DNA of 33,385 nucleotides from Alphaproteobacteria bacterium (GTDB lineage Bacteria; Pseudomonadota; Alphaproteobacteria; Micavibrionales; UBA2020): contig JAQSWE010000020.1 of the NCBI GenBank assembly GCA_029266795.1, positions 1-33,385 of the forward strand. Reading direction: 5' to 3'. A program made the position numbers and the translations under genes. Of this stretch, positions 17,676-26,344 are shown one piece after another. Numbering within the stretch: position 1 is the first letter of the stretch; each line of letters begins with the position of its first letter. The notes beneath the pieces are model-generated. The model did not search any database. It saw nothing but the letters and a program-made list of their open reading frames with translations, and was not told the DNA's origin.

Positions 17676-18290
17676 TTACCAGTGACGGACGCGGCCCGTA
17701 TCGACATGCACGAAGTTCGAGGACGGGTAATACCCCACGCCGCCCGAGTTCAGCTTGATCGCGGCCTGGCGCAGGCCCTTCAGCGGGGTGCCGGGCAGCT
17801 TGATGTCGATCGCCTGACCCGACATATGCAGGCTGCGGGTCGCGACGCCATGGCTTGCGACGCGCAGCTTGGCATTCGTCTTGGGTGAGCGGTAGCCCGA
17901 GAAAACGTCGAAGGTGTTGGTGTTCGACAGGCGGTGCTGCAGGACATACAAAATGTCCATCAGGCGCGGGTCGATGGGGAAACGCTCGCCGGTGCGGTGA
18001 TCGCGCATGACCGACTTGATTTCACCGAATGCGTCGGGCAGGTAACGCCCGCCATACCAGTATTCGCCGCGAAACTTTTCGCCGGTATGGATGTTTGTCA
18101 GTTGCATCTCGCGACCCACGTTTTTCAGCGCAGGGCCGGTCGAGGCCAGCGAGAGATCAGGCATCCAGCAGCCAAGGGCTGCGGCGGCAACAAGACCTGT
18201 TTTCAGAAACGAGCGGCGATCGGCATCGAAAGCGTCAGCGGCAGAGCTGTTTTTGGACATCAGCTCGGCGGGTTCGATAAAGCGGTTCAT
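17676..18290 (-). CDS. DUF882/YcbK-like (M15-type) protein with Tat-type signal
   Basis: DADRRSFLKTGLVAAAALG; FDVFSGYRSPKTNAKLR, SLHMSGQAIDIKLPG, GGVGYYPSSNFVHVDTGRVRHW; probable start MNRFIEPAEL at 18290 (ORF open to 18362). Confidence 0.9.
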   Translation of the reverse strand: MNRFIEPAELMSKNSSAADAFDADRRSFLKTGLVAAAALGCWMPDLSLASTGPALKNVGREMQLTNIHTGEKFRGEYWYGGRYLPDAFGEIKSVMRDHRTGERFPIDPRLMDILYVLQHRLSNTNTFDVFSGYRSPKTNAKLRVASHGVATRSLHMSGQAIDIKLPGTPLKGLRQAAIKLNSGGVGYYPSSNFVHVDTGRVRHW

Positions 18291-18529
18291 GAGTTTATCC
18301 CATGTATGGTTAATACTTTGCTTCTCTTCTCGTAGAGAATACCAAATTAACTGGGGTTTCAAGCAAAAATCTCAAGTTATTACATAATATTAGAAGGATT
18401 AACTTAGATTATAACTCAAATACGCAAGGAAATTACTGCGATGCACAAAAGTATTTAGACACCTGTTCAATATAAGGTGTCACCACCCGAAGAACGGCCA
18501 GATCAAGACCGCTTGAAAAGGAGGGATAC

Positions 18530-18973
18530 ATGATGAATACCGAACAGAAAATCCGCAAATTTTTCGACGACTACACGCGACGCTTTAACAACAACCTTGC
18601 CGCAGGCGCGGCAGTGGATGCGAAAGCCGTGCGTGATTCATTTGCCGACTATTTCGTGGAATCCAGCTCGAACGGCGTGCAGGGCAGCCGCAATAACCTT
18701 TTATTCGGCTTCGTCATCCCGCGCGGCTTCCGCCATTACCGGCGCCTGGGCGCGACCGGCATCACGCTGGCGCGTTTGCAGCTGACGCGCATCGACGATC
18801 ATCATTATATGGCGCAGGCGCATTGGGATGCGGCTTACAGGCGGAAAAACGGCACGTGCAGCATTGGTTTCGATGTCGTTTATTTCCTCACGCTGCATTC
18901 CGGATCGCCGAAAATATTTTCCTACATCACAGCGGACGAGAAAAAAGTACTGCGCGCGCACGGGATTGTTTAA
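18530..18973 (+). CDS. Hypothetical protein, possibly NTF2/SnoaL-like fold
   Basis: 147 aa; KIRKFFDDYTRRFNNNL...DSFADYFVESS...; RBS-like AAGGAGGG upstream. Confidence 0.6.
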   Translation: MMNTEQKIRKFFDDYTRRFNNNLAAGAAVDAKAVRDSFADYFVESSSNGVQGSRNNLLFGFVIPRGFRHYRRLGATGITLARLQLTRIDDHHYMAQAHWDAAYRRKNGTCSIGFDVVYFLTLHSGSPKIFSYITADEKKVLRAHGIV

Positions 18974-19896
18974 GCGCCGGCGTAGCGGCGGCACACATCC
19001 GAAATATATCCGCGATACCATTGATGGGCGGCATCGGCGTCGCGCCGCGCATGCCAGACCATATGCAGGTCGAATTGCGGAATATCGAAATCGGTTTTCA
19101 GCACGCGAAAACGTGCATTATCCTTCAGGAACCCTACATCGTTGCGGTCGATCAACAGCAGGTAATCCGTTTCCTGCAGCAATTCGATCTCCGCCCAGAT
19201 ATCCGGCACCGATACCAGCGTCTTTTGCAGCAGCCCCTCGCGCCGGAATTTGGCGTCGAGCAGCGACGGCGCAAAACTCGCCGTCGCCTTGATATGGGGG
19301 GTATCGAGATATTCCATCCTGCCGATAATGCCCTTTTTGAAATGCGGGTTTTTGTCGGAGCATAAAACCACCAGTTCTGTTTTGAACAGCTTCACCGACG
19401 AAAACTGCTTGTCGACCTTTTCGGAGACAAGGCCGATATAAATATCTGCCATCCCCTCCTCCACCTGCTGCAACGCCTGCTGCTCGCCGAGATTGATCAT
19501 GTCGGCCTTCAGCAGCGGGAATTTTTTCACGAGGTTGAGCGACAATTCCTCGAACAGCATCCGACCCTTCACGAACGGAATGACGACGGAGAATTGCGCG
19601 GCCATCGTTGCCGGATCGAACACCGCATTGCGCATCGACGCCAGAGATTGCAGCCGGTCGAGCATTTCCGATACCTGTTTCGCATAGGCATGGCAGAACG
19701 CGGTCGGTTCCAGCCCGCGCGGTGTGCGGATGAAAAGCTCGTCGCCCGTCAGCGCGCGCAGTTGTTTCAGGTACACCGAAATGCTGGGCTGCGCGAGGTG
19801 GAGCCGTTCGGCGGCCAGCGTTGTTTTGCGGGTGGCATAGAGCGCCTCCAGCACCGACAGCATCGTCACGTTGATTTTGTTGAGTTCCTGCCTCAT
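18970..19896 (-). CDS. LysR family transcriptional regulator
   Basis: 308 aa; MLSVLEALYATRKTTLAAERLHLAQPSISVYLKQLRALTGDELFIRTPRGLEPT winged-HTH. Confidence 0.95.
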   Translation of the reverse strand: MRQELNKINVTMLSVLEALYATRKTTLAAERLHLAQPSISVYLKQLRALTGDELFIRTPRGLEPTAFCHAYAKQVSEMLDRLQSLASMRNAVFDPATMAAQFSVVIPFVKGRMLFEELSLNLVKKFPLLKADMINLGEQQALQQVEEGMADIYIGLVSEKVDKQFSSVKLFKTELVVLCSDKNPHFKKGIIGRMEYLDTPHIKATASFAPSLLDAKFRREGLLQKTLVSVPDIWAEIELLQETDYLLLIDRNDVGFLKDNARFRVLKTDFDIPQFDLHMVWHARRDADAAHQWYRGYISDVCRRYAGA

Positions 19897-19919
19897 ATAT
19901 TGCGCCCCGTAACTGATAT

Positions 19920-19940
19920 TATAATTTATAATAAATTATA
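19920..19940. promoter_or_regulatory. Perfect 21-nt AT palindrome TATAATTTATAATAAATTATA between divergent lysR and 20018 gene
   Basis: Base-by-base symmetric around 19930; lies in the 121-bp divergent intergenic region. Confidence 0.5.
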
Positions 19941-20017
19941 TCATATTTCATTATTAGATTATATATCCATAATCTGGCATTCTGAAGATAGAGGGTAACG
20001 CAACAAGGGGAAATAAC

Positions 20018-20530
20018 ATGGCTGACGCAGATTTCAAACGCCGCGTGGAAATGATCGAAGCAGGCTCGGTGGATGATTTCCAGACCGTCAACAGCCTGCT
20101 CGCCGATGACAAATACCTGCATTCCTTCGGCGTCTATCTTGGTGTCATGTCCCGCGAAAATCCCTCCGCCGTTGAAAAAAGCCTGAACCTGCCGAACCTC
20201 GACCGCACGACCGGCTTCTTCCGCCAAATGATCTCGAATGCGGTTTCGAACGCCGCGTATAGCGGTGAAAAGGAATTCCTCGAAACGCTGTTGAAATACG
20301 CGCCGGAACCGGCAGACCAGGCACAAGACGGCTTGCGCCATATCTTTGACTCGATGGCGATGGACAGCCGCGACAACTTCTCGGCCGATACCGCCGCGAT
20401 CCTTGTGCGCGCGGGCGCGAACGTGCAAACCGCAGCGGCACCTTACGAAGCGCAACTGGTTGCGCAGCAGAACAAGGCGGCTGCGTCGCTGTCGAAAATG
20501 GCGCAGTTCAAGCAAAGCATCGCGGCGTAA
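20018..20530 (+). CDS. Hypothetical helical-repeat (ankyrin-like) protein divergent from the LysR gene
   Basis: 170 aa; ...ETLLKYAPEPADQAQDGLRHIFDSMAMDSRDNFSADTAAILVRAGANVQTAA resembles degenerate ankyrin repeats. Confidence 0.65.
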   Translation: MADADFKRRVEMIEAGSVDDFQTVNSLLADDKYLHSFGVYLGVMSRENPSAVEKSLNLPNLDRTTGFFRQMISNAVSNAAYSGEKEFLETLLKYAPEPADQAQDGLRHIFDSMAMDSRDNFSADTAAILVRAGANVQTAAAPYEAQLVAQQNKAAASLSKMAQFKQSIAA

Positions 20531-20550
20531 GATACGATTGATCCCGAATA

Positions 20551-21441
20551 TTACGGCTTCGGCCAGCGGCGATGCACCCAGAGCCATTGTTCCGGCTTTT
20601 CCCGGATCCAGCTTTCCAGCAGCAAATTTATATCGGTCAGGATGAGTTTGACGTCGGCATCTTTCCCGCCCGTCACGATCACCGGCAACGGGGGAAAAGC
20701 GGTCAGGCGGAAACGGCATCCCGCGATGCGCTCCACGCGAAACGGATAAAGCGGACAGCTGAATTTCAGGGCGAAATGGGCAATCGCGGGTGCGGTCATG
20801 GCATCATGACCAAAAAACGGAATCGCGACGCCCTCGTTCAGTTTCTGGTCCACCAGCATGCCCACAACGCCGCCGGCACGGAGCAGCGTGACGATGGCGC
20901 GCGCGCCGCCCGGGCCTTTTTCGATGTAACCGGCGCCGCCCAGCGACCGCGCATGCGACAGCAGCTTTTCGACCCACCGGTTGTTGGGCTTCCGGTAAAC
21001 GATATGCAGGTCGAGCCCCGTTTTCTGGCGGAGGATCGGCACTTCCCAATTCGCGGTATGCGCGCTGAATAGGATTGCGGCCTTGCCGTTGTCGCGCGCA
21101 GCCTCGAGATGCTCGATGCCGATGACTTCAGCACCCTTCCAGATATGGTGCAAATGCGGATATTCGGCGATGACGCGGCCGAGATTGTCCCACATGCCGT
21201 TCAGGATAATATTTTTTTCGTCTTGTGTTTTCTCTGGAAAGGCGCGGTCCAGATTGCGTCCCGCGATCTTCGCGCCCTTCAGGTGCGGGCCGGCCTTTGA
21301 CAGCAGATAGCCACCGAGGGATGACGCCTTTTCCATCGGCAGCAGCCAGAAGAAGCCATAGATGATATGCGCGAGCAAACCCTCGACGGCATATCGCACA
21401 TGTCGCAAAAATACGGGTTGCCCGAGGGCACGCGCAGTCAT
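20551..21441 (-). CDS. Lysophospholipid/lauroyl acyltransferase family protein (LpxL/HtrB-like)
   Basis: From ATG at 21441; FSAHTANWEVP (HxxxxWE-type motif), YRKPNNRWVEKLL, LVDQKLNEGVAIPFFG, EQWLWVHRRWP. The track ORF extends further upstream (to 21771), likely spuriously. Confidence 0.92.
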   Translation of the reverse strand: MTARALGQPVFLRHVRYAVEGLLAHIIYGFFWLLPMEKASSLGGYLLSKAGPHLKGAKIAGRNLDRAFPEKTQDEKNIILNGMWDNLGRVIAEYPHLHHIWKGAEVIGIEHLEAARDNGKAAILFSAHTANWEVPILRQKTGLDLHIVYRKPNNRWVEKLLSHARSLGGAGYIEKGPGGARAIVTLLRAGGVVGMLVDQKLNEGVAIPFFGHDAMTAPAIAHFALKFSCPLYPFRVERIAGCRFRLTAFPPLPVIVTGGKDADVKLILTDINLLLESWIREKPEQWLWVHRRWPKP

Positions 21442-21506: not shown

Positions 21507-22319
21507 TTAAGGCGAGGGCGGAAGATAGGGCGGCTTGGTCAGCTTGGGGTTTTTGATCGCGTCGAGCTCTTCGGTCAGCTCTTTTACCTTCACCTGTAGG
21601 TCGCGGATGGCGAACATTTCTTCTTTTACCTCTTCGAGGAGGGCGCGGTTGCCGCGGAAGCCTTCTTTCTTCGCGCCTTCGATCGCCTCGTCGATATTCG
21701 CGCCGTGGCGCTCGACCAGATAGCGCACAACCTGTTTCTTGTCGCGGCTTGCCGCTTCGCGCAAGGCCCATTGCAGGTTTTTTGGGGGCGTGCCGATCGC
21801 CTCCACCAGCAGGGTATAGGCGCGCAACGCACCCTGTTGCAGCGCGGTTTCCGCCAGCCGTTCGGGGTTCTTGATATTGGCGACGCCGCCTTCGATCAGC
21901 CGCTCGACCAGCATCGCCTTGCGCCCGTCATCAATGCCGGAATGCAGCACGTTCGAGATAATATGCGACCAGCCGTCCGATTTGTTGAAATCGATGCCGG
22001 CGTCGAGGAAATGCTCGAAGGTGTCGTAGCGTTTATCGTTGATGGCGTTGCGGAACTGTTTTTCAAGGAAGCTGTCGCGCGCCGCGCGGTCTTCGAAGCC
22101 CCAGCGCGCCCAGTCTTCGTCGCTTGCCTCTTTCGCAAAAAACTTTATCGTCTCCGGCTGCAAGCGCCAGCTGTCATAGCGTCCATAGCCGCGCTTCTCC
22201 AGCTCTTCTAGCTGCTTTAAAATATTCTTGTCTTCATAGCCCAGCCAGTCGCGCAAACGCTCCACGTTGTTTTCGCGCGCGGCCTGAACGAATTCATAGG
22301 AACTGCCGACATACTTCAT
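21507..22319 (-). CDS. Ankyrin-like helical-repeat protein with C-terminal coiled coil and tail
   Basis: 270 aa; ALREAASRDKKQVVRYLVERHGANIDEAIEGAKKEGFRGNRALLEEV...LQVKVKELTEELDAIKNPKLTKPPYLPPSP. Confidence 0.75.
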   Translation of the reverse strand: MKYVGSSYEFVQAARENNVERLRDWLGYEDKNILKQLEELEKRGYGRYDSWRLQPETIKFFAKEASDEDWARWGFEDRAARDSFLEKQFRNAINDKRYDTFEHFLDAGIDFNKSDGWSHIISNVLHSGIDDGRKAMLVERLIEGGVANIKNPERLAETALQQGALRAYTLLVEAIGTPPKNLQWALREAASRDKKQVVRYLVERHGANIDEAIEGAKKEGFRGNRALLEEVKEEMFAIRDLQVKVKELTEELDAIKNPKLTKPPYLPPSP

Positions 22320-22870
22320 CTGCGGTCCGGCTCCGGCTGCTGCAGCATGAACGGCGGCGACCTGTCGATCAGGCCTTTCGTGGCGAAGAAGGCGACGACA
22401 TCGCGGAGATTGGCGCGGTTGGCAAAAGCGACGGCGCGCTCGGGAAAGGTCATGTTGCTGTGCCCTTGCTCCAGCATCTGCGCAATATAACGCAGCCTGT
22501 CCGAATCTTCGATGGGCGACAGGACGACACGCAGCATCGCTTCGGTGCCGTGCCGGCCGTTGAAATGATTTTTTTCTTTACGGATGATAACGTCCAGCGC
22601 CGGGATGTTCCGGGCTTCGAGCAGGCGCGACAGCACATGAAGGAACGGCGTGCCCTCGTCGATATCTTTCTCGTTGGCGGCGCCGTTTTTTCCCGTCAGC
22701 ACCGCCGCCATTTGCGGCGTCAGGGCGGCGGCAAGTTTTTCGTCCAGCAGTTCCGACAATTTGTAGCCCTTCACCTCGCGCGCCAGCCGTTCGGCGACCA
22801 GCACATCGTCCTTCAGAATGGCGTCGCGCAGCTTGCCTGCGGCGGTCTGGAAAACGCCTTTCATGCTCAT
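22316..22870 (-). CDS. Ankyrin-like helical-repeat protein, short paralogue
   Basis: 184 aa; ATGA overlaps at both ends; ...ARNIPALDVIIRKEKNHFNGRHGTEAMLRVVLSPIEDSDRLRYIAQMLEQGHSNM. Confidence 0.7.
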   Translation of the reverse strand: MSMKGVFQTAAGKLRDAILKDDVLVAERLAREVKGYKLSELLDEKLAAALTPQMAAVLTGKNGAANEKDIDEGTPFLHVLSRLLEARNIPALDVIIRKEKNHFNGRHGTEAMLRVVLSPIEDSDRLRYIAQMLEQGHSNMTFPERAVAFANRANLRDVVAFFATKGLIDRSPPFMLQQPEPDRR

Positions 22871-23709
22871 GGCGACGGGTTCCGCAGCACAGGCTTGTTC
22901 AGCGACGTATCCGGCTGCAGCTTCGCCAGCTTTTCCGTCAGCTCCCGCACGGTGTCCTGCAGCGACCCCACTTCGGCGGTCAGGGTTTCAACTGTGCGGA
23001 GCGCGGGCGCGGCAGGCAGCTTCTTTTTCAAATCCCCGAGGAATTCGAAAACATCCTTGTTACCCAGCGCCATTTCCGTCGAAATCGCAAGGTCGATATC
23101 CGCGCCATGGCGCGTTACTAAATGCAGTGCCATGTCCGTTGATTGGCCGCGCGCAGCGCCGCGCAGCAGTTGCTCGTTGTTCTTGTGCAAGTCAAGGCCG
23201 ATGGCGGCGAACAGGTCGACCGCTTCAGTAAATTTTTTATCTACCGCTATTTGCAACGATTTGTCCGTATCCTGCATCCCGTCATAGCCCTTGGCGAGCA
23301 TTTGTTTCATCATGCGCAGCTTCACATCGTCGGGAAACGCGCTTGCGATCACGATCCCCAGAAACCAGCTGCCCGTTTTCTGGTTAAAATCCGTGCCCCC
23401 CCTCTCCATCAGCATTTCGGCAATCTCCAACCGGTTACGGCGGATTGCGTCGCCGAGCATGGAATCGAGGATCGTCTGTTTCGAGCCCGGTTTCATCTCC
23501 CAGCGGCCCAGTACCGTGTCATCGAGCTTTTCGATCAGCAGCCCCGCCATGCGGGGCGTTATGTCGGCCACGTACTCGCCGCGCAGTAGTTCTATAAAAA
23601 AGTCGTAACTCTTTTTCTGCATCAGCTGCTCCATGCGCGGCAGGTCGTCGGTTTTCACCGTTTCGCGGAAGGCGTCTGATTTGGACTGGAAGATGCGGGA
23701 CAGTTTCAT
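22867..23709 (-). CDS. Ankyrin-like helical-repeat protein with C-terminal coiled coil and tail
   Basis: From MKLSRIFQSKSDAFRE at 23709 (ORF open to 23763); AIRRNRLEIAEMLMERGGTDFNQ, AARGQSTDMALHLVTRHGADIDLAIS...LTEKLAKLQPDTSLNKPVLRNPSP. Confidence 0.75.
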   Translation of the reverse strand: MKLSRIFQSKSDAFRETVKTDDLPRMEQLMQKKSYDFFIELLRGEYVADITPRMAGLLIEKLDDTVLGRWEMKPGSKQTILDSMLGDAIRRNRLEIAEMLMERGGTDFNQKTGSWFLGIVIASAFPDDVKLRMMKQMLAKGYDGMQDTDKSLQIAVDKKFTEAVDLFAAIGLDLHKNNEQLLRGAARGQSTDMALHLVTRHGADIDLAISTEMALGNKDVFEFLGDLKKKLPAAPALRTVETLTAEVGSLQDTVRELTEKLAKLQPDTSLNKPVLRNPSP

Positions 23710-23795: not shown

Positions 23796-24506
23796 TTAAA
23801 GCTGAAACGGCTTATGCGGTTTTGCGTCGTTTTTAGGGGTGCTTTGCGGGGTGACCGTCAAGACGAAATCGCGCAGCAATTCCAATGCCTTGGGGCTGGC
23901 ATCATGCTTCTGGCCAGTGATGATTTCGGCCTCGGCCCTGAATTGCTGTTCCTTTAGAACGGTTTGGAACCACACCGCATGGGGCGCGCCGGAATAGTGC
24001 TGGTTTTCCAGCTCCCCCGCCACCAGCTTGACCGGCGGTTTTGATTTCACCTCGGCAAGGTCGAGCGCGCCGCCCGAAATGGCGAAGACGCCGGCGACTT
24101 CCGTTTCGCGGGAGAGGCCCGTATAAACCGCCATCGTGCCGCCCTGCGAAAAGCCCGCGATGACGACGCGGTTTTCCGGCAGGCCCGCTTCCGCCGCGAT
24201 TTTCGTGATGTAATCGTTGAGCTCAGCTGCGGTCGCCGGCGCGCGTTCCTGCGCAGTGCGTCGCAACAGGCCAATATCATCCTGCCGGTCGATCACGTCG
24301 CGCAGTTCGAACCAGCTGTGGTTGTTGAAGCCCATCTGCACGGGCGCATCGGGGAAATGCAGTTTCGCATTCGGCAGCATCGGCCCGAGGATGTCGCCGA
24401 CATACTGGCGCATCAGGTCGCCCGACGAGCCGTAGCCATGCATAAACACAACCAAAGTCTCGGGTTTCTTGCCGCTTTCGGGATCGCGCGAATAATCCTG
24501 AATCAT
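23796..24506 (-). CDS. Phospholipase/carboxylesterase family alpha/beta hydrolase
   Basis: 236 aa; LVVFMHGYGSSGDLM, VVIAGFSQGGTMAVYTGLS nucleophile elbow, QKHDAS. Confidence 0.88.
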   Translation of the reverse strand: MIQDYSRDPESGKKPETLVVFMHGYGSSGDLMRQYVGDILGPMLPNAKLHFPDAPVQMGFNNHSWFELRDVIDRQDDIGLLRRTAQERAPATAAELNDYITKIAAEAGLPENRVVIAGFSQGGTMAVYTGLSRETEVAGVFAISGGALDLAEVKSKPPVKLVAGELENQHYSGAPHAVWFQTVLKEQQFRAEAEIITGQKHDASPKALELLRDFVLTVTPQSTPKNDAKPHKPFQL

Positions 24507-24582: not shown

Positions 24583-25218
24583 TTATCCCAAAGGACGGGT
24601 ATTGCCCATCTGCGCCTGCGCCTTCTGCTGCATGGCCTGCGATTCCATGATCGCGCGGCGGAATTCGATGGGGGTTTCGATGGGCGGCAGAACGACCTCG
24701 CCCACGCCCATGCCGCGGATGACGACGTTGCCATAGCCGAAGATACGGCCCAGCACGCCCTGGCGAACCGACACACCCTCGATCCGGTCGATGTTCAGCT
24801 CACCCACGTTGCGGGCGATGAGGCCTTTTTTGTAGACGAGGCGCTCCGACGTGACCGCGATTTCGGTTGTCGCCTTCACGATCATCATATGCGCGAAGAA
24901 ATAAAGGCCGAGCAGGAACATGCCGAGGATGCTGAAGCGGATCAGCGGGTGCAGCGCCCAGAGGATTTTCAGGTAGCCGCCTTTTTTCGCGACGATCTGG
25001 TTCCAGGCCATGTCGTACATCTGCTTTTCCATGTCGGGCGGATACAGCGCGCGCATTTCCTGCGACACCACCCACCAGATCGCGACATAGCCGACCGCGA
25101 TGCCGAGCGCGAGGCCGAACATGATCCAGCCGATCGCCTGCAGCGTGTACATCCAGTGGAAGCGCGCCCCCATCAGGATTTCTTCTTTCGGGCCGAGTGA
25201 CTGCTGGACGTAAAGCAT
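24583..25218 (-). CDS. PH domain-containing membrane protein (bPH2/YdbT-like)
   Basis: 211 aa; two TM regions then TTEIAVTSERLVYKKGLIARNVGELNIDRIEGVSVRQGVLGRIFGYGNVVIRGMG. Confidence 0.9.
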   Translation of the reverse strand: MLYVQQSLGPKEEILMGARFHWMYTLQAIGWIMFGLALGIAVGYVAIWWVVSQEMRALYPPDMEKQMYDMAWNQIVAKKGGYLKILWALHPLIRFSILGMFLLGLYFFAHMMIVKATTEIAVTSERLVYKKGLIARNVGELNIDRIEGVSVRQGVLGRIFGYGNVVIRGMGVGEVVLPPIETPIEFRRAIMESQAMQQKAQAQMGNTRPLG

Positions 25219-25261: not shown

Positions 25262-26344
25262 TTAATCGCCAAGGCAAATGCCGAGCATGCGCGCGGTATG
25301 CACCAGCGGGCCTTTCACATCGACCTGCTGGTAGGACGCAATCGCGTCCTGAATCGGCACATCGATCACGCCGCGGTTCGACCAGGCGACCATTCTGTCA
25401 AATTTGCCTTCCGCAACCAGTTCAACCGCGCGCACGCCGAACGCTGCCGCCACAAGACGGTCGGACGGAATGGGCGGCGCGCCGCGCTGGACGTGGCCGA
25501 GGACGGTCACGCGTGTTTCGAAGCCCGTGAGTTCCGCAATTTGCTCGCCGATATGGTAGCCGATGCCGCCGAAGCGTTTTTCGCCGCCCTTGTATTCCAT
25601 CTGCTTGGCGCCGCCTTCAATCGTTTTCACGGCTTCAGAGACAACGACGAGCGCGAAGTTGCGCTGTTCGGTGTCGCGCACCTTGATGATCTTCTCGGCG
25701 ACTTTTTTGATGTCGTAGGGAATTTCGGGGATGAGAATCACATCAGCGCCGCCCGCGATGCCTGTGGAAATGGCGATATTGCCCGCGTCGCGGCCCATCA
25801 CTTCCAGCACCATCACGCGATCATGCGACGCGGCGGTCGGCTGCAAACGGTCCAGTGCTTCTGTTGCGACATAGAGCGCGGTTTCAAAGCCCACCGACAT
25901 TTCCGTCATGCCGACATCGTTGTCGATTGTTTTCGGCACACAGACGAGGCCGAATTTTCCGCGCTGCGCCAGCGTGCGCAAAATCGCCATCGAGCCGTCG
26001 CCGCCGATGCCGATCACGGCTTCGAGGCCCAGCTGCTGGATGCCGTCAATGATTTCGCCGGTGCGGTCTTTTTCCGTGCCGTCTTCCATCGGGAATTTAA
26101 ACGGGTTGCCCTTGTTCGTAGTGCCAAGGATCGTGCCGCCCTGGCGCATCACGGTGGTGTCGAACATCGCGCGGTTCAGCACCTTGTAACGCAAGGGACG
26201 GTCGAGCAGGCCGGCCGTGCCGTCTTCCAGCCCGATCACTTCCCAGCCCTTTTCCGCCGCCGCGTGGACCGCCGCGCGAATAACCGCGTTGAGTCCCGCG
26301 CAATCCCCGCCCGAAGTCAGGATGCCGATGCGTTTCTTTCCCAT
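25262..26344 (-). CDS. pfkA: 6-phosphofructokinase
   Basis: 360 aa; ILTSGGDCAGLNAVIRA, IGIGGDGSMAI, PKTIDNDV, EVMGRDAG, LGHVQRGAPPIPSDR. Confidence 0.95.
   Translation of the reverse strand: MGKKRIGILTSGGDCAGLNAVIRAAVHAAAEKGWEVIGLEDGTAGLLDRPLRYKVLNRAMFDTTVMRQGGTILGTTNKGNPFKFPMEDGTEKDRTGEIIDGIQQLGLEAVIGIGGDGSMAILRTLAQRGKFGLVCVPKTIDNDVGMTEMSVGFETALYVATEALDRLQPTAASHDRVMVLEVMGRDAGNIAISTGIAGGADVILIPEIPYDIKKVAEKIIKVRDTEQRNFALVVVSEAVKTIEGGAKQMEYKGGEKRFGGIGYHIGEQIAELTGFETRVTVLGHVQRGAPPIPSDRLVAAAFGVRAVELVAEGKFDRMVAWSNRGVIDVPIQDAIASYQQVDVKGPLVHTARMLGICLGD

What the first reader, a model, noticed from the sequence alone, without database searches (positions are those of the whole stretch)
21507..23709. 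Translationally coupled three-gene operon of divergent ankyrin-like proteins with a shared C-terminal coiled-coil + 'PSP' tail
Three consecutive minus-strand genes overlap by ATGA (22867-22870 and 22316-22319), so they are probably co-translated. The outer two share degenerate ankyrin-like helices (VTRHGADIDLAI / VERHGANIDEAI) and end alike: a coiled coil (VRELTEKLAKL / VKELTEELDAI) followed by a Pro-rich terminus (LNKPVLRNPSP / LTKPPYLPPSP). The middle, shorter gene keeps the N-terminal region but lacks the tail. Stoichiometric co-translation plus one tail-less subunit suggests a complex. The tail could be an assembly, localisation or secretion signal. I do not recognise this as a described system.
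Basis: partly seen in the sequence, partly recalled or inferred. Interest (0 to 1): 0.62.

Follow-up and report, generated by a model that had tools for sequence, protein, structure and literature searches.

The report
Volatile tandem ankyrin-like gene family
Three overlapping bacterial genes are copies of one another and encode ankyrin-like binding proteins, most of which end in a coiled coil; related bacteria carry zero to three copies at the same chromosomal spot, so this looks like an ordinary, fast-changing duplicated gene family rather than a fixed three-part machine.

Summary
The three genes, both ATGA overlaps and the shared tail of A and C are real, and all three are coding. A, B and C are paralogues (A-C 26% over 234 residues; A-B 24% over residues 1-172). 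The ankyrin homology is real but degenerate: Pfam scores fall below cut-off, while a family profile finds solved ankyrin proteins. The family is confined to one alphaproteobacterial family; one member genome is titled Micavibrio sp. It occupies a conserved slot: PFK > bPH2 > esterase > [ankyrin x 0-3] > Tat-exported DUF882/M15. Of 16 readable genomes, 7 have no copy, 5 one, 3 two and 1 (this one) three.

The three-subunit-complex reading is not supported. B occurs only here, as a long-branch truncated relative of A, and two sister genomes join A directly to C by the same overlap. The coiled coil plus an L-x-K motif is a family trait, also on single-copy members. Pro-rich ends are common in this lineage (12% of proteins), so 'PSP' is weak evidence for a sorting signal.

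Unexpected: gene C is a recombination mosaic whose ankyrin body was exchanged while both ends follow the species tree. Best reading: cytosolic, coiled-coil-oligomerising ankyrin adaptors; partner unknown.

The parts
22867..23709 (-). ankyrin-like gene A (280 aa), full-length family member with coiled coil and tail
   Evidence: orthologues 81% and 78% identical in the sister genomes G003 and G004
22316..22870 (-). gene B (184 aa), truncated A-like paralogue without the last repeats and the coiled coil; found only in this genome
   Evidence: coding signature; groups with the A genes on a branch of length 2.35
21507..22319 (-). ankyrin-like gene C (270 aa), full-length family member with coiled coil and tail
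   Evidence: orthologues 91% (G004) and 78% (G003) identical
22867..22870 (-). ATGA stop/start overlap A-B
22316..22319 (-). ATGA stop/start overlap B-C
22918..22992 (-). coiled-coil helix of A, residues 240-264, hydrophobic a/d heptads V240 L243 V247 L250 V254 L257 L261 L264
22870..22917 (-). disordered Lys/Pro tail of A, residues 265-280 (pLDDT below 50)
21549..21620 (-). shorter coiled-coil region of C, about residues 234-257
21510..21548 (-). Lys/Pro tail of C, residues 258-270
21795..22274 (-). region of C (codons 16-175) matching the mosaic tract: this genome's ankyrin body is nearest to that of G004, against the species tree
23796..24506 (-). conserved upstream neighbour: phospholipase/carboxylesterase (Abhydrolase_2)
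24583..25218 (-). conserved upstream neighbour: bacterial PH domain (bPH_2) protein
25262..26344 (-). conserved slot border: phosphofructokinase
17676..18362 (-). conserved downstream slot border: DUF882/M15 peptidase with a weak Tat-signal match

Best explanation
This is a lineage-restricted tandem family of cytosolic ankyrin-like adaptor proteins at a conserved chromosomal slot. Each full-length copy has an N-terminal solenoid of degenerate ankyrin-type helix pairs that would bind a partner protein, then a 20-25 residue coiled coil that would let copies form homo- or hetero-oligomers, then a short disordered Lys/Pro end. The copies arise by tandem duplication and are kept in an ATGA-overlapping operon, so downstream copies are probably translated by termination-reinitiation. 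B is a fast-evolving, truncated relative of A. Copy number changes between species, and the ankyrin body can be replaced by recombination while the ends stay constant. Shown: paralogy, slot, copy-number variation, family-wide tail, mosaicism of C. Inferred: cytosolic location, oligomerisation, partner binding, translational coupling. Unknown: the partner and the benefit.
For: Paralogy. Ankyrin relationship: family profile against PDB sequences hits ankyrin proteins, best 1.1e-7, and Pfam hits just under cut-off. AF2 models with mean pLDDT 81 (A) and 78 (B) are all-helical hairpin repeats; A ends in one helix, residues 240-264, with perfect a/d heptads. No hydrophobic N-terminal stretch in A, B or C. 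Slot and copy number 0-3 in 16 readable genomes. The coiled coil plus L-x-K motif is present in single-copy members too. Purifying selection on A and C (dN/dS 0.10-0.24). Mosaic C: codons 16-175 support G000+G004, the rest G003+G004; 0 of 200 shuffles reach the signal, and two of three neighbouring control genes show nothing while the esterase is borderline at 12 of 200. B coding. B groups with the A genes.
Against: Foldseek finds no significant solved structure for either model (A best E 0.08; B best E 0.43, with ankyrin proteins among the weak hits at TM 0.4-0.46), so the fold may be an ankyrin-derived helical solenoid that no longer looks canonical. No interaction, expression or localisation data exist. 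Two sister genomes are few for the mosaic analysis, and all are draft metagenome assemblies. The grouping of B with the A genes carries a long-branch warning.
Confidence: 0.55

Rival explanations
1. One reading: A, B and C form one stoichiometric three-subunit complex, with B as a tail-less subunit.
For: Overlapping starts and stops, and the shared coiled coil in A and C.
Against: B is absent from every other genome of the family, including two sisters that keep A and C under purifying selection and directly overlapping. Five genomes carry a single copy at the same slot.
Confidence: 0.07
2. Self-protection or chaperone model, as for Bdellovibrio Bd3460: the ankyrin proteins bind and restrain the neighbouring Tat-exported DUF882/M15 cell-wall peptidase.
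For: The ankyrin slot directly precedes the M15 gene in most genomes that carry it. The peptidase has the twin-arginine stretch DRRSFLK. Bd3460 is an ankyrin protein that inhibits the endopeptidases Bd3459 and Bd0816 (PMC4686830). Micavibrio is a predator (own knowledge).
Against: A, B and C lack an export signal whereas Bd3460 is periplasmic. M15 is kept in genomes with no slot ankyrin gene: G001, G005, G007, G010, G012, G016, G017. In this window other genes lie between C and M15. DUF882 proteins are common housekeeping enzymes (own knowledge).
Confidence: 0.12
3. The Pro-rich tail is a dedicated secretion or localisation signal and the ankyrin proteins are effectors delivered to prey or placed at the envelope.
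For: The tail is conserved across the family, and a second tandem array in G017 ends in another Lys/Pro tail.
Against: Pro-rich ends are widespread in this lineage on unrelated proteins. The tail profile finds little beyond family members except weak, mostly coiled-coil, matches. Nothing in the slot resembles a secretion system.
Confidence: 0.1
4. The ankyrin proteins regulate or scaffold the upstream esterase and bPH_2 membrane protein.
For: The esterase is adjacent in 8 of the 9 genomes with slot ankyrin genes.
Against: G001 and G005 keep the esterase without the ankyrin gene, and G015 has ankyrin genes without the esterase; the pattern also follows genus, so it is not independent evidence.
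Confidence: 0.16

Closest known systems
Bacterial ankyrin-repeat proteins (Pfam Ank clan)
   Same: Helix-pair repeats with G-A-D/N-x-N/D-type signatures (RHGADIDLAI); profile hits to solved ankyrin proteins
   Different: Scores below Pfam cut-offs, no significant fold match, C-terminal coiled coil and tail
Bdellovibrio Bd3460 ankyrin self-protection protein
   Same: Small ankyrin protein of a (probably) predatory lineage, encoded near a peptidoglycan peptidase
   Different: No export signal here; tandem paralogues; coiled-coil tail; peptidase conserved without the ankyrin genes; sequence relationship not tested directly
Wolbachia ankyrin gene repertoires (PMC3563639)
   Same: Many divergent ankyrin genes; a paper on their diversity and evolution that mentions intragenic recombination was found (abstract and counts only)
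   Different: Symbiont of arthropods, dispersed genes; here a single slot with 0-3 copies
Tandem ankyrin/coiled-coil/KPYP-tail cluster of G017 (C187)
   Same: Three tandem ankyrin-type genes each ending in a coiled coil and Lys/Pro tail; profile-profile probability 94%, E 1.5e-7
   Different: Other locus (next to a TldD-like gene), different tail sequence

Membership tests
Ankyrin-repeat protein | Repeats recognised above the curated Pfam ankyrin cut-off | tested here: not met
   Best A 25.0 bits against 27.3, best C 21.3 against 22.3, none in B
Ankyrin-repeat protein | Profile homology to known ankyrin proteins | tested here: met
   hmmsearch of A2 against PDB sequences, E 1.1e-7 to ANK-N5C-281, many further ankyrin chains
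Ankyrin-repeat protein | Ankyrin fold (stacked helix pairs with beta-hairpin fingers) | tested here: inconclusive
   Helix pairs predicted confidently, no strands of 3 or more residues, no significant Foldseek match
Bd3460-type self-protection protein | Exported to the periplasm (signal peptide) | tested here: not met
   N-terminal 19-residue hydropathy maxima -0.43, 0.35, -0.51 for A, B, C
Bd3460-type self-protection protein | Binds and inhibits a peptidoglycan endopeptidase | not testable with these tools
   Needs a binding assay; the neighbouring peptidase occurs without the ankyrin genes
Obligate three-subunit complex | All three genes conserved together | tested here: not met
   B only in this genome

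The most novel reading that the evidence does not exclude
The slot is a recognition repertoire: constant N-terminal cap and C-terminal coiled coil, with an exchangeable ankyrin body swapped between species by homologous recombination and multiplied by tandem duplication, used in a conflict such as phage defence or predator-prey recognition.
Probability: 0.12. Interest if true: 0.6.

Novelty: new member of a known kind. Interest (0 to 1): 0.3.

Why it matters
If the recombination pattern holds in more genomes, it gives a free-living alphaproteobacterial example of ankyrin repertoires diversifying by body exchange between constant ends, and a small, tractable set of proteins for finding the partner. 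As it stands it is a clear case of lineage-specific paralogue expansion, and a caution against reading co-translated paralogues as subunits of one complex.

Tried and rejected
Three-subunit complex: rejected as a conserved unit because B is unique to this genome. PSP tail as specific sorting signal: weakened by the proteome control. B as pseudogene: coding signature and an open frame argue against it (neutral simulation leaves 172 codons stop-free in 0.4-8% of runs, assumed substitution levels). P0004 (20018-20530, +) as a fourth member: no BLASTP similarity to A, separate distribution. Defence-system or phage protein: PADLOC and PHROGs give only weak hits (best 0.0024 and 0.043). Foldseek against PDB: nothing significant. 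No paper on ankyrin arrays in Micavibrio was found in the held library.

Full report
What is there. Codon-position GC and an in-frame hexamer score place all three among real genes. A and C align over 234 residues at 26% (E 4e-15), tails included; B matches A over residues 1-172 (24%, E 3e-12) and then stops, so it lacks the last repeats and the coiled coil.

Ankyrin relationship. Pfam ankyrin models hit A and C just below their cut-offs and miss B. A profile of twelve family members finds solved ankyrin proteins in a PDB sequence search (best E 1.1e-7). AlphaFold2 models of A (mean pLDDT 81) and B (78) are all-helical repeats; A ends in one helix at 240-264 and a disordered tail from 265. The helix has hydrophobic residues at V240 L243 V247 L250 V254 L257 L261 L264, a clean heptad pattern. 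Foldseek against PDB gave nothing significant for either model, so I call the fold ankyrin-like, not proven ankyrin.

Where it occurs. The profile finds full-length members only in the window's own taxonomic family among 142 genomes of the order; hits elsewhere cover only part of the profile. Titles of matching records include Micavibrio sp. and unnamed Alphaproteobacteria MAGs, so this is probably a Micavibrio-related lineage; predation by this organism is not shown. The genes sit in a slot: DUF465 | PFK > bPH_2 > esterase > [ankyrin] > DUF882/M15, then, where the stretch reaches that far, rnpA, a YidD-like gene and YidC. Readable slots in 16 genomes: three copies here; two in G003, G004 and G015; one in G002, G006, G008, G009 and G011; none in G001 and G005 (esterase kept) and in G007, G010, G012, G016 and G017 (esterase also missing). 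G013 is cut by a contig end and G014 gave no orthologous bPH_2 locus.

The middle gene. B has no counterpart elsewhere in the family beyond its similarity to A, apart from one short 51-residue hit in G012. In G003 and G004 the A and C orthologues overlap each other directly by ATGA. Neighbouring genes show G003 and G004 to be sisters with this genome outside. In the tree B groups with the A genes (99/100) on a branch of 2.35, with a long-branch warning. The simplest reading is a duplicate of A that was truncated and evolved fast in this lineage; loss in the ancestor of G003 and G004 is not excluded. Its frame stays open, which could reflect its own function or the need to keep C translated (inference).

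The tail. All twelve aligned full-length members keep Lys at position 272 of A after the coiled coil, mostly in an L-D/N/T/E-K context. A search with the tail alone finds the family members strongly and little else. The Pro-rich end is not distinctive: 38 of 324 predicted proteins in 400 kb of G003 have three or more Pro in the last 12 residues, as do 24 of 321 in 400 kb of G052 from another family, against about 2.6% of internal windows.

Mosaic of C. For G000, G003 and G004, informative sites in C split by position. Codons about 16-175 group this genome with G004 (G000-G004 up to 97-100% amino-acid identity in codons 61-120, G003-G004 63-70%), while the first codons and codons from about 181 group G003 with G004 as the neighbouring genes do. 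A maximal-segment scan gives z 7.8, reached in 0 of 200 shuffles. The controls ABH376 (123 of 200) and YidC (35 of 200) show nothing; the esterase is borderline (12 of 200) and A is weak (5 of 200). The Fisher value of 7e-14 uses boundaries chosen from the same data and should be read with that in mind. The exchange is therefore well supported for C and only suggestive for A.

A parallel. G017 has, at another locus, three tandem ankyrin-type genes that also end in a coiled coil and a Lys/Pro tail; the two families match at 94% probability, E 1.5e-7, over 137 columns including the coiled coil. Short ankyrin-coiled-coil proteins in tandem thus recur in this lineage.

How it likely works. No member has an export signal or membrane segment by hydropathy. 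The most economical model is a cytosolic adaptor: ankyrin body for a partner, coiled coil for oligomerisation, ATGA coupling for balanced synthesis. The partner is unknown. The esterase is next to it in most carriers but neither depends on the other. A Bd3460-like restraint of the Tat-exported peptidase (PMC4686830) is possible but lacks the export signal and the co-occurrence.

Verdict. It is a new, lineage-restricted member of the bacterial ankyrin world, with an interesting recombination pattern.

Noticed in passing
window 20018-20530 (+): A 170-aa gene with ankyrin-like wording near its end (AAILVRAGANVQTA) but no Pfam ankyrin hit; relatives only in G001, G005 and weakly G015, at other loci.
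   Followed up: partly
window 18970-21441: A lipid A acyltransferase, the 170-aa gene and a LysR regulator lie between C and 18530-18973 here; G003 and G004 have instead a single 196-aa gene of unknown function (L047:7730-8317) in that place.
   Followed up: partly
G003:C4:1-400000 and G052:C1:1-400000: C-terminal Pro is unusually common: 11.1% and 9.3% of predicted proteins end in Pro against an overall Pro content of about 5%.
   Followed up: partly
L149 (G017:C187), 177-2533: Three tandem ankyrin/coiled-coil genes with KPYP-type tails, upstream of a TldD-like gene; two of them share similar sequence before the start codon.
   Followed up: partly
L147 (G001:C103), ORF 1000-1611: A short ankyrin-like protein elsewhere in a genome that lacks the slot copy ends in a coiled coil and PKLDKPRPSLKR, close to the tail of C.
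   Followed up: no
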